Shown: in pieces, positions 19,175 to 24,703 of the stretch
Layout of the letters: each line of letters starts with the position of its first letter
Numbering within the stretch: the stretch's first letter is position 1
Assembly (NCBI GenBank): GCA_038878695.1
Contig: JAVZVD010000002.1
Coordinates: 1 to 64,000, forward strand
Direction: 5' to 3'
DNA from: Fervidicoccaceae archaeon
Lineage (GTDB): Archaea > Thermoproteota > Thermoprotei_A > Sulfolobales > Fervidicoccaceae
Length of the DNA: 64,000 nucleotides
The notes under the pieces: generated by a model
Database searches by the model: none
Seen by the model: the letters and a program-made list of their open reading frames with translations, nothing else
Told to the model about the DNA's origin: nothing
Made by a program: the position numbers and the translations under genes

Positions 19175-19780
19175 TTGGGAGAGCCGCGTGTGCTCGTAGA
19201 GGCGAACCTCAGGAAGCTCGGCGGCCTAGAGATACGAGGAGAGGAGATATTCGTGCTGTCTCGGATAGCGCTAGCGGTCTCGGCTATAGAGCGCGGAGTC
19301 TCCCCCCACGTAGTATCTCAGTTCCTGAGCTGGAGAGAATTCGAGGAGGAGGTCGCGGCCATACTTGAGGAGAGCGGAGCGAGCTGCTTGAGAGGGCTCA
19401 GGTGCTCTAAGCCCCAAAAGTTGGAAGTTGACGTGGTGGGGCTATTAGGTCGAGAGGTCCTAATCGTCGACTGCAAGCATTGGAATCCGAGAAGCTCTAC
19501 CCCCTCGAGGCTGGCAGCGATAGCAGAGCAGCACGCGCGGAGGGCGAGAAAGCTTACACTCTGTCGCGAGTTAATCGAGGAGATCGAGCGCGAAGCGGGC
19601 GGAGGCATCGCGCACCTCTACCCCATCGTGGTCACGTTGTTGTCTAAGATGAGGGGGCCTCTTGGGGGGGCAACGATAGTGCCAATATCCCTCTTAGCGA
19701 GCTTCTTGAGATGTTTCGACGAGCTTAAGCTCGAGCTCCCCCGCATCGCTATTGAGCCAGCGGGCTGTGAGAGATGCTGA
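19175..19780 (+). CDS. PD-(D/E)XK nuclease-like protein with possible N-terminal winged helix
   Basis: From the TTG at 19175 the protein has 201 residues; the nuclease-like core is KLEVDVVGLLGREVLIVDCKHW, matching E-x-D...(D/E)xK of restriction-endonuclease-like folds, preceded by FEEEVAAILEESG. The same frame is open upstream to 19058 and encodes a winged-helix-like segment (LEQAARLLLRGGPRTVGELA) with no ATG, GTG or TTG. The true protein may start upstream at a non-standard codon, or an indel hides the start. Overlaps thyX by seven bases. Function unknown; DNA repair or restriction-like cleavage is a fold-based guess. Confidence 0.6.
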   Translation: MGEPRVLVEANLRKLGGLEIRGEEIFVLSRIALAVSAIERGVSPHVVSQFLSWREFEEEVAAILEESGASCLRGLRCSKPQKLEVDVVGLLGREVLIVDCKHWNPRSSTPSRLAAIAEQHARRARKLTLCRELIEEIEREAGGGIAHLYPIVVTLLSKMRGPLGGATIVPISLLASFLRCFDELKLELPRIAIEPAGCERC

Positions 19781-21066
19781 GAGCGGAGCTCGTGAAATTC
19801 ACCCCTGAATGCGATAAGCTCGTTGCCGTAGCTAGCAAGCAGACGCTAACGAGGAAGCCGTTCGACGTCAGCTGGGCCTCGATGCTCGAGGAGGAGAAGG
19901 AGGAGTGGATTCGAGAGACCATGAGGAGGGGGCATACTAGCCCCTGGGAACATTGCGTCTATACGTTCTACATTGAGGGGCTATCTCGCGTCGCGTGCTA
20001 CGACGAGGAGACGGAAGTCCTCACGAGAGAGGGGTGGATGAGATTCGAGCACGTCGATCTGAGCACGGAGGTAGCCTGCATGGAGTCGGGCGCGCTCGAG
20101 TGGTGCAGACCTAAAGCCAAGATAATAGAGCTCTATAGGGGCCCTATGGTCAGGCTCCGATTGGAGAAGGGGGAGCTCCTAGTCACGCCCGAGCACAGGC
20201 TTTGGGTCCGCGACGAAGACACGAAGACTTGGGTTCTCGTCGAGGCGTCCAACCTCGAGCCGGGCTCCTATGGGATCAAGACTTCACTCGGCTCGGGAAG
20301 ACCGGGGGACTCCCTAGAGCCCGACGTCGTAGTCCGCGTGGAGAACGTGGAGCTGGTGTACTACGCGGGGCGCGTGTACAGTCTCGTTGTACCGGGGCAC
20401 TTGCTATACGTGAGGAGGGGCGATTTGGTCTTGTGGTCGGGGAATTCGCATCAGCTCGTGAGGCACAGGCTCGCCAGTTACACGCAGCACAGCCAGAGAT
20501 ACAGAGCCCTCGACGAAGAGCTGCTCAAGCCGGTGGTGCCGCCGAGCGTAATCAAGCGAAGTGAAGCCGCCGAGGAGTTTGAGGCCGCGTACGCGAGAGC
20601 GTTAGAGGCTTACAGGAGGCTCCTGAAGATCGGCGTGCCTCCCGAGGACGCGAGGTACGTGGTGCCTCAGGCCGTGGCTACGAAGATCATCGTGACTATG
20701 AACGCTAGAGAGCTCGCTCACTTCTTGAGCCTGAGGACTTGCGCTAAGACGCAGTGGGAGCTCAGGGCACTCGCGTGGCTTATGTGGAGGAGGCTTTACG
20801 ACGCTCACCCCTTGCTCTGGAAGTGGATCGGGCCCAGGTGCCTGCAGCTCGAGAACTTAGCGCGCAACGAACCCATAACGGTGGCCGACCTCGTAGGAGA
20901 GGATCTTCTCTCGATGCTGGGCGTTGACATGAGAGCCTCTGGGAGCCGCCCACACATCGTCGCAGAGAGATGCCCTGAGCTCGTCCCCAGGGACTTCGTG
21001 CGCGAGTGCGCTAGGAGAGGACTAGAGGAAGCCCTGAGCTATCTGAGAGCCTCGGCCTCACTCTAA
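19774..21066 (+). CDS. thyX: Flavin-dependent thymidylate synthase ThyX, interrupted by a mini-intein
   Basis: Makes dTMP from dUMP using methylene-tetrahydrofolate and FAD. The 430-codon gene encodes an extein of 280 residues with the ThyX motif RHRLASYTQHSQR (from R230) and TMRRGHTSPWEH near residue 50. A 150-residue insertion (C75-N224) splits ...IEGLSRVA from SHQLVRHR; removing it restores the normal ThyX sequence just before the active-site motif. ATG start overlaps the upstream nuclease-like gene. No ThyA is seen in the window. Activity requires protein splicing, as the intein lies beside the FAD/dUMP site. Confidence 0.95.
   Translation: MLRAELVKFTPECDKLVAVASKQTLTRKPFDVSWASMLEEEKEEWIRETMRRGHTSPWEHCVYTFYIEGLSRVACYDEETEVLTREGWMRFEHVDLSTEVACMESGALEWCRPKAKIIELYRGPMVRLRLEKGELLVTPEHRLWVRDEDTKTWVLVEASNLEPGSYGIKTSLGSGRPGDSLEPDVVVRVENVELVYYAGRVYSLVVPGHLLYVRRGDLVLWSGNSHQLVRHRLASYTQHSQRYRALDEELLKPVVPPSVIKRSEAAEEFEAAYARALEAYRRLLKIGVPPEDARYVVPQAVATKIIVTMNARELAHFLSLRTCAKTQWELRALAWLMWRRLYDAHPLLWKWIGPRCLQLENLARNEPITVADLVGEDLLSMLGVDMRASGSRPHIVAERCPELVPRDFVRECARRGLEEALSYLRASASL
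19996..20445 (+). other. ThyX mini-intein (150 residues, no homing endonuclease)
   Basis: Hint-type protein-splicing element in frame within thyX. It begins with Cys (CYDEETEVLTREGWMRF, block A), has block B with TxxH (LLVTPEHRLWV), a block F/G region (RVYSLVVPGHLLYV) and ends LVLWSGN, followed by Ser as the +1 residue. The penultimate residue is Gly where His is usual. At 150 residues it has no room for a LAGLIDADG endonuclease and none is seen, so it is a mini-intein no longer able to home on its own. Confidence 0.92.
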
Positions 21067-22772: not shown

Positions 22773-22783
22773 CTCTATATAGG
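22773..22783. promoter_or_regulatory. TATA box for the tRNA-half/tRNA-Met unit, possibly bidirectional
   Basis: CTCTATATAGG is nearly symmetric and is the only clear TATA-like box between the four-cysteine gene (minus strand) and the tRNA sequences (plus strand). On the plus strand it predicts a transcript start near 22800, ahead of the tRNA 3' half. On the minus strand it lies about 40 bases before the TTG start of the small gene. No separate box is visible between the tRNA half and tRNA-Met. Confidence 0.6.
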
Positions 22784-22840
22784 AGAGGCGCAAACGTTTT
22801 TCAGCTTAGCGGCGAACCAGCAGTGGGTGGGGGAGGGAAG

Positions 22841-22877
22841 AGCCCCCGCGACCGGGGTTCGAATCCCCGCCCGGCTA
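22841..22877 (+). tRNA. Lone tRNA 3' half, tRNA-Gln-like (candidate split tRNA)
   Basis: An intact T arm CGGGG/TTCGAAT/CCCCG (22853-22869) is followed by acceptor strand CCCGGCT (22870-22876), discriminator A and an encoded CCA (22878-22880). The anticodon-stem strand GCCCC starts at 22842, preceded by A22841 (position 38). The matching 5' acceptor AGCCGGG and an anticodon arm are absent upstream; instead a G-rich leader (about 22801-22840) follows a TATA box. The sequence just before A22841 (GGGAAG) resembles the intron 3' ends of the nearby Met and Thr tRNAs. GACC-T-arm-CTA fits archaeal tRNA-Gln. It may be a trans-spliced 3' half, or a remnant such as an attachment site. Confidence 0.6.
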
Positions 22878-22889
22878 CCACCAAATCGT

Positions 22890-23002
22890 GCCGCCGTAGC
22901 TCAGCCCCAGGAAGAGCGCCGGACTCATACGGTCGCCCCGGAAAGATCGGGTCGAGCGCCTGGGGAATCCGGAGGTCCCGGGTTCGAATCCCGGCGGCGG
23001 CA
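22890..23002 (+). tRNA. tRNA-Met (CAT), elongator type or tRNA-Ile2, with intron
   Basis: Acceptor GCCGCCG (22890-22896) pairs with CGGCGGC (22995-23001); T arm CCGGG/TTCGAAT/CCCGG at 22978-22994; anticodon stem CCGGA/TCCGG; anticodon CAT at 22926-22928. An intron of about 37 bases (22930-22966) follows position 37. Mature length is 76; discriminator A and encoded CCA (23003-23005). The acceptor does not have the initiator AGC pattern, so this is elongator Met, or Ile2 if the anticodon C is modified. It lies nine bases after the CCA of the tRNA half and is probably co-transcribed with it. Confidence 0.92.
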
Positions 23003-23039: not shown

Positions 23040-24260
23040 TTGGAAGAGTCATTGCTCCTGGGTTTGTGGAATCTCGAAGTTTACGAAAGACTCGTCCTGC
23101 GTGGCGCCAGCGATGAGGTCTCCAGGAGCCCTCGCCCCGGCTTCGGCGTGATGTACTTCTCCGCCAATGGAAAGGTCGTTTGGCTCAGAGGAAGCGAGCC
23201 GACGTCGCTTTGGTACAGGACGTCGAGACCCCAGAGGCTCTCTCCGTGGAGGCTCGGTCTTCACGAGCACGAATGCGGCGAGGACGGCGCGATGCCCTTG
23301 TCCACGATACCTTGGGAGGCCTCGATCGTTAGGGGGATCGATATCGAGGAGAAGGTAGTCACGATCCTCGAGGTAGAGGGTTACGGGAGCCTAGACGAGC
23401 TCTCACACAAGCGATACGAGAAGCTGAGGCCGGTTAATGCCGAGAGGGTTACGGAGGGCGCGAGGATCAATTTAGGAGTGGGCTGGGCCTCGATTCAATT
23501 AAGCGGAGGATCCCTCGAGCTCGAGGCGGGGGGAGAGCCTGAGGCGCTGGCCGGGCCTAGGCTGTCCGCGTTGGTCTGGCCTAACGTGGCGATGATCATT
23601 GACCGCGCGGGGGGCCTCCTCTTATTACTACCGTTGAAGGGAAGGCTGAGCTTCACGATGGGAGCGAAAGTGGATCAGCCTCTCGTGTTTTGGTTGCAGC
23701 CCTTCGCTCTTGTGTGGGACTCGCTGAGTGTCGGCGAGAAGCTCGTTAGCGGGCTGGTGGGACTCCGAGGGCCGGAGGGAGCGATAGCAGTTGTCTCGAG
23801 CTCGGAGCTCGAGGCCCGCTTCATTGGGCGAGAACTCGAGGCCTCCTCGGAGCGACCGGTCGCGGTCTACAGCGGGCGCGGACTGAGTCGTGATCTCGTG
23901 AGACGTTGGTACGAGCTGTCGGCTAAGTTCGGCAGAGCGAGAGAGCTGACGCCGTTGGTGAAATTGAGCCCGCCGGCGCTTATCCCTCACTCCAGTCGCC
24001 TGAGGTGCGTCGGCGAGAGGGGGCCGCACGAGCTCGAGCTCGAGCTGGTCAATCCTATGCCGAGGAGCGTCTCGACCAGAATCTACGTGAGACCTCCGCA
24101 CTATGTGGCAAAAGCGTCCGCCGCGATCGACGGCGAGGAGGAGCTCGCGCCAGCCAGACCGAACTCGCTCGAGCTGGCACTGCCACCTTACGAGGCGATC
24201 TCCCTGAAATTAGAGCTGAGGTCGACGGCAGGGCTTTACTCGAAGCCCTCCAATTGGTAG
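23040..24260 (+). CDS. Hypothetical beta-rich protein
   Basis: 406 residues from TTG 23040, with no motif I recognise. The sequence is rich in beta-strand-like alternation throughout (LSALVWPNVAMIIDRAGGLLLLLPL), with no signal peptide and no convincing membrane span. The last 80 residues (LELELVNPMPRSVSTRIYV...LALPPYEAISLKLEL) look like a beta-sandwich such as those closing some glycoside hydrolases, but no catalytic domain is evident. Long and conserved in codon character, so a real gene. It converges on the splicing endonuclease gene, overlapping by 25 bases. Confidence 0.6.
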   Translation: MEESLLLGLWNLEVYERLVLRGASDEVSRSPRPGFGVMYFSANGKVVWLRGSEPTSLWYRTSRPQRLSPWRLGLHEHECGEDGAMPLSTIPWEASIVRGIDIEEKVVTILEVEGYGSLDELSHKRYEKLRPVNAERVTEGARINLGVGWASIQLSGGSLELEAGGEPEALAGPRLSALVWPNVAMIIDRAGGLLLLLPLKGRLSFTMGAKVDQPLVFWLQPFALVWDSLSVGEKLVSGLVGLRGPEGAIAVVSSSELEARFIGRELEASSERPVAVYSGRGLSRDLVRRWYELSAKFGRARELTPLVKLSPPALIPHSSRLRCVGERGPHELELELVNPMPRSVSTRIYVRPPHYVAKASAAIDGEEELAPARPNSLELALPPYEAISLKLELRSTAGLYSKPSNW

Positions 24261-24703
24261 TACGATACGTCGCCGTGCTTATCTACTATGGCGAGAATCA
24301 GGGCTCTGCCTTGCTTCCTCGAGGTCTGTAGCCACTCGATGAGACTGTTCACGACGAGCGGCACGGTCTCCTCCAGCACGACTATATTGGCGAGCGGCTT
24401 GCCGCCTGAATACATCGTGAAGCCGTGGGGGAGAGGCCCTCGCTTGACGAGCCTACCTCTTTCTATCAGGTCATAGTAGACCGAGAACATCACCCAGGCT
24501 CTGGGCTCTTCGCTCGAGTAGATCCGTATCACGTCGATCCAATCGATCTTATTGCCGTCACTTCCTCGTGCCTCGGTCTTGCCCTTCTTTGTCGCGTAAG
24601 CTAGCTCGAACACGTCGATTTCTCCCGGGGGCTCTAGGCACTCGCCCGTGGGACCTCCCCGGTACACCGCGATCGAGCACGGGGCGGCTCTGGACCCGCT
24701 CAC
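24236..24703 (-). CDS. tRNA-splicing endonuclease, structural-type subunit
   Basis: 155 residues with the C-terminal EndA layout: RAWVMFSVYYDLIERGRLVKRG, then SLIEWLQTSRKQGRALILAIVDKHGDVSYYQL, the last being the near-diagnostic AVVDxxGDxTYY ending of archaeal EndA. The catalytic histidine expected before the central strand (KHSxYLV type) is missing (GGKPLANIVVLE), so it is best read as the non-catalytic partner of a heterotetrameric enzyme, as usual in crenarchaea; a catalytic subunit should lie elsewhere. It would excise the introns in the tRNA-Cys, -Met and -Thr genes here and could join tRNA halves. Confidence 0.75.
   Translation of the reverse strand: MSGSRAAPCSIAVYRGGPTGECLEPPGEIDVFELAYATKKGKTEARGSDGNKIDWIDVIRIYSSEEPRAWVMFSVYYDLIERGRLVKRGPLPHGFTMYSGGKPLANIVVLEETVPLVVNSLIEWLQTSRKQGRALILAIVDKHGDVSYYQLEGFE

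What the first reader, a model, noticed from the sequence alone, without database searches (positions are those of the whole stretch)
22795..22880. Isolated 3' half of a tRNA (Gln-like) with its own promoter: candidate split tRNA
Seen: a perfect T arm, acceptor strand CCCGGCT, discriminator A and encoded CCA, with position 38 at A22841, but no 5' acceptor (AGCCGGG) or anticodon arm nearby. A TATA box at 22774-22783 puts the transcript start about 40 bases upstream. The bases before A22841 (GGGAAG then A) resemble the intron 3' ends in the nearby tRNA-Met (GGGGA then A) and tRNA-Thr (GGGAA then A). Known: some crenarchaea join tRNA halves in trans through a bulge-helix-bulge formed between leader and trailer. 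Inference: the G-rich leader pairs with the trailer of a 5' half elsewhere. A weaker D-arm resemblance in the leader (TAGCGGC) leaves a decayed whole tRNA possible.
Basis: partly seen in the sequence, partly recalled or inferred. Interest (0 to 1): 0.85.

Follow-up and report, generated by a model that had tools for sequence, protein, structure and literature searches.

The report
Trans-spliced glutamine tRNA in two pieces
The sequence is the second half of a glutamine tRNA gene whose first half lies on another contig; the two RNAs carry matching 12-base tails, so they most likely pair and are cut and joined, and close relatives make their glutamine tRNAs the same way.

Summary
Window 22843-22877 (+CCA) is the 3' exon of tRNA-Gln(UUG). 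Its 5' half is on another contig (G000:C3:229499-229536 +), and its trailer CCTCCCCCACCC is the exact complement of the leader GGGTGGGGGAGG (22825-22836). A canonical bulge-helix-bulge can be drawn and the joint falls at 37/38. The joined RNA is 75/76 identical to intact tRNA-Gln of order-level relatives. A second, orthogonal pair makes tRNA-Gln(CUG). The genome shows no intact tRNA-Gln. All seven same-family genomes examined have split Gln too, with different but complementary tails. In some, one 3' half serves both 5' halves; this genome has two dedicated ones. EndA alpha and beta genes and RtcB are present. No RNA evidence could be obtained. Split tRNAs are a known kind, including split Gln(UUG) in Nanoarchaeum at 32/33. 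I found no report of split tRNA-Gln in this crenarchaeal order.

The parts
22792..22805 (+). Likely BRE/TATA element of the 3'-half transcript (AAACGTTTTTCAGC)
   Evidence: Best hit to a motif learned from 43 tRNA upstream regions of this genome, 8.6 bits; the other 3' half has its best hit (AAGGTTTTTAACGC, 13.4 bits) at nearly the same distance, 52 against 51 nt before C38
22825..22836 (+). Leader pairing segment GGGTGGGGGAGG, complementary to the trailer of the 5' half at G000:C3:229538-229549
   Evidence: 12 of 12 Watson-Crick pairs in register; 1 of 200000 leader shuffles reaches this
22837..22840 (+). GAAG, central 4-bp helix of the bulge-helix-bulge; pairs with CTTT (positions 32-35 of the 5' half, one G-U)
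22841..22843 (+). 3-nt bulge AGC; predicted cut between G22842 and C22843
   Evidence: exon start matches intact homologues
22843..22877 (+). 3' exon of tRNA-Gln(UUG), positions 38-73 (C38, anticodon stem CCCCG, variable loop CGAC, T arm, acceptor CCCGGCT, discriminator A)
22878..22880 (+). Encoded CCA
22890..23002 (+). Intron-containing tRNA-Met(CAT), 9 nt downstream, without its own promoter motif; probably co-transcribed with the 3' half
   Evidence: a tRNA-Met also follows the 3' half closely in G001, G004 and G005
24236..24703 (-). Second EndA paralogue (beta-like subunit of the tRNA splicing endonuclease)
   Evidence: Pfam PF01974, E=1.3e-9, genome hit, PDB relatives are tRNA-splicing endonucleases

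Best explanation
This is the 3' half gene of a trans-spliced tRNA-Gln(UUG). It is transcribed from its own promoter, probably together with the tRNA-Met behind it, as a short G-rich leader followed by the 3' exon. The leader pairs over 12 bp with the trailer of a 5'-half RNA made from a distant locus. The duplex forms a bulge-helix-bulge at position 37/38. The splicing endonuclease (alpha and beta-like EndA subunits encoded here) cuts after G22842 and after position 37 of the 5' half, and an RtcB-type ligase joins the exons into a normal tRNA-Gln. A parallel pair with different tails makes tRNA-Gln(CUG). Shown: the sequences, their complementarity and specificity, the lack of any visible intact Gln gene, conservation with sequence-divergent but complementary tails in relatives, and the enzyme genes. 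Inferred: transcription, cleavage and joining.
For: No tRNA-Gln among the 41 tRNAs over the Rfam cut-off or the extra genes read by eye. AGCCGGGTCGTCTAGC occurs twice, as the 5' halves of Gln(TTG) (C3:229499+) and Gln(CTG) (C1:573569-). Two 3' halves exist: the window and C3:73345-73379. Each 5' trailer matches one 3' leader with at least 12 contiguous pairs in register and the other with 2; duplex energies are -47.0 and -48.6 for cognate pairs against -22.1 and -38.7 for non-cognate. The in-register run is reached in 1 of 200000 and 0 of 200000 shuffles. Both have the canonical 4-bp centre and 3-nt bulges. The joined TTG sequence is 99% identical over 76 nt to uninterrupted genes in order-level relatives. 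Many relatives carry an intron-like insert at exactly this site (45 of 80 loci). Same-family genomes G001-G007 have separate halves with tails of different sequence that still pair: runs of 11, 16 and 18 in fixed register in G003, G004 and G007. EndA x2, one with an alpha-type sequence, and RtcB.
Against: No RNA data. The assembly is 5 contigs at 98.3% completeness, so an intact copy could hide in a gap, although the single-contig relative G002 gave no intact Gln match either. The TTG leader is very G-rich, so energy alone is weak evidence (6 of 500 shuffles bind as well). The nearest-neighbour model prefers a slipped pairing GGGGCU/AGCCCC over the strict bulge-helix-bulge by about 6-8 kcal/mol; the same AG|C bulge also occurs in intron-containing relatives (L161, L200).
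Confidence: 0.95

Rival explanations
1. It is a remnant of a decayed tRNA gene or the tRNA end left by an integrated element (attachment site).
For: A lone 3' tRNA end with CCA is the usual trace of integration. Weak D-arm-like sequences lie upstream of both 3' halves (4.7% and 1.5% of random stretches match as well).
Against: A remnant requires an intact tRNA-Gln elsewhere, and none is seen. The exon is perfect, has a promoter-like motif, and its leader matches a 5' half exactly. The arrangement next to tRNA-Met is kept in other genera.
Confidence: 0.03
2. It is an ordinary intron-containing or circularly permuted tRNA whose other half is nearby.
For: Relatives outside the family do have 37/38 introns in tRNA-Gln; permuted tRNAs are known in Thermofilum (PMC3218864).
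Against: No AGCCGGG 5' half lies nearby. The two 5' halves are on other contigs, at least about 35-48 kb away even if contig ends abutted.
Confidence: 0.01
3. The 3' half is shared: it serves both Gln 5' halves, as in some relatives, rather than being dedicated to UUG.
For: G002, G003 and G006 show one 3' half for two 5' halves. The non-cognate CTG 5' half still binds this G-rich leader at -38.7 kcal/mol.
Against: In-register contiguous pairing is 12 or more for TTG against 2 for CTG, and the CTG 5' half has its own 3' half with 12 of 12 pairs. The two 3' exons differ at one base (GCGACC against GTGACC).
Confidence: 0.15

Closest known systems
Nanoarchaeum equitans split tRNAs (Glu UUC/CUC, His, iMet, Lys, Gln UUG)
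   Same: Two distant half genes, complementary tails, a BHB-type junction; Glu, His and iMet also joined at 37/38; Glu(CUC) and Glu(UUC) share one 3' half, like Gln in some relatives here (PMC3218864 Table 1, PMC4390854)
   Different: N. equitans Gln(UUG) is joined at 32/33, here at 37/38; here both Gln isoacceptors are split, each with its own 3' half; different phylum
[quoted passage not shown] split tRNA-Lys(CUU) of Staphylothermus (Chan et al. 2011, PMC3218864)
   Same: Desulfurococcales-type crenarchaea, canonical hBHBh' junction, 13-14 bp GC-rich trans helix, own promoter for the 3' half, Asp joined at 37/38
   Different: Other tRNA species; halves adjacent or about 4.5 kb apart there; here on different contigs, and the split runs through a whole family of genera
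Split and tri-split tRNAs of Caldivirga maquilingensis (PMC4033280, PMC4390854)
   Same: Trans-spliced halves, some shared between isoacceptors
   Different: Tri-split Gly and splits of Glu and Ala; Gln is not among them

Membership tests
Archaeal trans-spliced (split) tRNA | 5' and 3' halves encoded at separate loci | tested here: met
   Window C2:22843-22880 and C3:229499-229536
Archaeal trans-spliced (split) tRNA | No contiguous gene for the same tRNA | tested here: met
   No tRNA-Gln among 41 Rfam hits, a T-arm pattern scan, or BLAST with the joined sequence; assembly 98.3% complete
Archaeal trans-spliced (split) tRNA | Trailer of the 5' half complementary to the leader of the 3' half | tested here: met
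   12/12 pairs in register, 1 of 200000 shuffles
Archaeal trans-spliced (split) tRNA | Bulge-helix-bulge at the junction, normally at an intron site | tested here: met
   CTTT/GAAG centre, bulges GGA and AGC, 37/38; a slipped alternative is lower in the energy model; relatives have introns at the same site
Archaeal trans-spliced (split) tRNA | Each half has its own promoter | tested here: inconclusive
   Motif hits upstream of both 3' halves and the CTG 5' half; the TTG 5' half has only weaker hits at a plausible distance (7.5 and 6.2 bits)
Archaeal trans-spliced (split) tRNA | Joined product is a canonical tRNA | tested here: met
   99% identity over 76 nt to intact tRNA-Gln of relatives
Archaeal trans-spliced (split) tRNA | Half precursors and joined tRNA detected as RNA | not testable with these tools
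   No RNA data available
Archaeal trans-spliced (split) tRNA | Genome encodes a splicing endonuclease able to act on such junctions, and a ligase | tested here: met
   Two EndA paralogues and RtcB are encoded; their activity on this substrate was not tested
tRNA remnant or integration site | Intact tRNA of the same kind elsewhere | tested here: not met
   None found
Circularly permuted tRNA | 5' half directly downstream of the 3' half in one transcript | tested here: not met
   tRNA-Met follows instead

The most novel reading that the evidence does not exclude
Trans-splicing of both tRNA-Gln isoacceptors is ancestral to a whole family of crenarchaeal genera and has been kept while the pairing tails diverged. 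Within it, a single 3' half shared by two 5' halves and a pair of dedicated 3' halves with mutually exclusive tails are two states of one evolving system, and the same tRNA was split again, or kept split, in at least two other families of the order.
Probability: 0.6. Interest if true: 0.72.

Novelty: new member of a known kind. Interest (0 to 1): 0.64.

Why it matters
Split tRNAs were described as rare and sporadic, and it is debated whether they are ancient or recent. Here one essential tRNA pair appears split in every same-family genome examined, intron-containing or intact in other families of the order, and split again in some of them. That gives a graded series (intact, intron, shared 3' half, dedicated 3' halves) in which the direction and age of splitting, and the evolution of specific RNA-RNA recognition tails, can be tested. 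It also explains why standard annotation finds no glutamine tRNA in this genome.

Tried and rejected
A first pattern search used the wrong spacing (6 nt instead of 5) between the acceptor and TAGC and gave only chance-level matches. The lone T arm at C3:73177-73242 first looked like a third split tRNA but is the 3' end of an intron-containing tRNA-Trp starting at C3:73037. The proposed TATA at 22774-22783 and position 38 at A22841 were rejected. Energy shuffles proved uninformative for the G-rich leader and were replaced by an in-register test. Initiator tRNA-Met was not found with three patterns; in relative G002 it appears to carry two introns, which may explain this. The first classifier of the genome-contig loci had a faulty 3'-exon pattern and was redone.

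Full report
What is there. Window 22843-22880 holds positions 38-73 and CCA of a tRNA: anticodon strand CCCCG (22844-22848), variable loop CGAC, T arm CGGGG-TTCGAAT-CCCCG, acceptor strand CCCGGCT, discriminator A and encoded CCA. Neither ARAGORN nor Rfam calls a tRNA here. The next gene, 9 nt on, is an intron-containing tRNA-Met at 22890-23002.

Where the other half is. The genome (1.11 Mb, 5 contigs, 98.3% complete) has 41 tRNA hits over the Rfam cut-off. None reads as tRNA-Gln; tRNA-Trp and tRNA-Pro(CGG), missed by the model, were read by eye. AGCCGGG followed at tRNA spacing by TAGC occurs twice, at C3:229499 (+) and C1:573569 (-), in the identical 16-mer AGCCGGGTCGTCTAGC. These are 5' halves of Gln(TTG), AGCCGGGTCGTCTAGCGGCCAAGGATGCGGGGCTTTGG, and Gln(CTG), the same with CTCTGG. 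There are two 3' halves: the window and C3:73345-73379.

The pairing. The TTG trailer (A)CCTCCCCCACCC is the exact complement of the window leader GGGTGGGGGAGG; the CTG trailer (A)CCGCTGCCGCTC is the exact complement of the C3 leader GAGCGGCAGCGG. Crossed pairs match over only 2 bases in register. Shuffling the leader reaches the window run of 12 in 1 of 200000 trials and the other run in none. Both duplexes have the canonical layout: anticodon stem CGGGG/CCCCG, 4-bp centre CTTT/GAAG or CTCT/AGAG, 3-nt bulges GGA and AGC, then the 12-bp helix. Cutting each bulge after its second base joins the exons at 37/38. A caution: the energy model favours a slipped pairing of GGGGCU with AGCCCC over the strict layout. 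The same AG|C bulge is present in intron-containing tRNA-Gln of relatives (L161, L200), so it is evidently tolerated.

The product. The joined TTG sequence is 99% identical over all 76 nt to uninterrupted tRNA-Gln genes of several order-level relatives. In those genes position 38 is C (TTTGG|CCCCCG), which confirms C22843 as the first exon base.

Relatives. Among 80 named contigs carrying the 5' exon, 22 have an uninterrupted gene, 45 an intron-like insert before the 3' exon and 13 no 3' exon nearby. The records include Ignisphaera, Acidilobaceae, Pyrodictiaceae, Thermogladius and Staphylothermus. In the window's own family (G001-G007) the matches are separate halves. G002 is one contig of 1,319,206 bases, close to the size I recall for Fervidicoccus fontis, so the family may be Fervidicoccaceae; this name is from memory and untested. 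Tails differ between genera yet pair within each: fixed-register runs of 11, 16 and 18 in G003, G004 and G007; others pair with a small shift. Splits outside the family: G011, G021 and G031 (family f5) and one isoacceptor in G013 (f7). G002, G003 and G006 have two 5' halves but one 3' half, as in Nanoarchaeum tRNA-Glu; G000 and G004 have two 3' halves. The window copy belongs to a 'Met locus': a tRNA-Met follows the 3' half closely also in G001, G004 and G005. The C3 copy lies beside an ERCC4-like nuclease gene (my reading of the sequence), as does the second 3' half of G004.

Expression and machinery. A motif learned from 43 tRNA upstream regions puts the promoter at 22792-22805, 51 nt before C38 (52 nt in the other 3' half). 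Other tRNA genes mostly start 35-40 nt after the motif start, so the transcript should start close to the pairing helix. The downstream tRNA-Met has no motif of its own (1.1 bits), suggesting one transcript for both. The genome has two EndA paralogues, one of them in the window at 24236-24703, and RtcB. Two-subunit EndA is the type described with broad specificity in crenarchaea (PMC6379350).

Known and new. Split tRNAs are known in Nanoarchaeum (including Gln(UUG), joined at 32/33), Caldivirga, Aeropyrum, Thermosphaera and Staphylothermus (PMC3218864, PMC4033280, PMC4390854). Searches of the held library found no report of split tRNA-Gln in this order or in Fervidicoccus; subscription papers and database annotations were not searchable. 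The finding is a new member of a known kind, with unusual breadth: a whole family, both isoacceptors, and both shared and dedicated 3' halves.

What is not shown. No RNA was seen. Transcription, cutting and joining are inferred from sequence, conservation and established knowledge of the pathway.

Noticed in passing
window 24236-24703 (-) and G000:C1:263867-264121 (-): Two tRNA splicing endonuclease paralogues; the window one lacks the obvious catalytic motif and looks like a structural beta subunit, 1.4 kb from the half tRNA.
   Followed up: partly
window 19774-21066 (+): ThyX (thymidylate synthase complementing protein) interrupted by a short intein-like insert (Intein_splicing, E=0.0009, below the curated cut-off).
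   Followed up: no
L311 (G002:C1:272866-272919 -): Isolated 3' part of a tRNA-Lys(CTT)-like gene with a TATA-like box and a GC-rich leader, resembling the Staphylothermus split tRNA-Lys(CUU); its 5' half was not found with the one pattern still available.
   Followed up: partly
G000 whole genome; L310 (G002:C1:115573-115689): Initiator tRNA-Met was not found in the window's genome; in relative G002 it is interrupted by what look like two introns.
   Followed up: partly
window 22807-22823 and L069 near 1807-1824: Both 3' halves have a weak D-arm-like sequence at about the same distance upstream of the exon (11/18 and 12/18 matches); possibly fossils of whole genes, or chance.
   Followed up: partly
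G000:C3:73037-73242 (L069): tRNA-Trp with a long insert, missed by the tRNA model, directly upstream of the tRNA-Gln(CTG) 3' half.
   Followed up: partly
G000:C1:573569 (-) (L071 656-965): The tRNA-Gln(CTG) 5' half lies just upstream of the SRP RNA gene on the same strand.
   Followed up: no
L162, L146, L190: tRNA-Gln genes of other order members with 96-174 nt between the exons, which could be adjacent split halves like Aeropyrum tRNA-Asp rather than introns.
   Followed up: no
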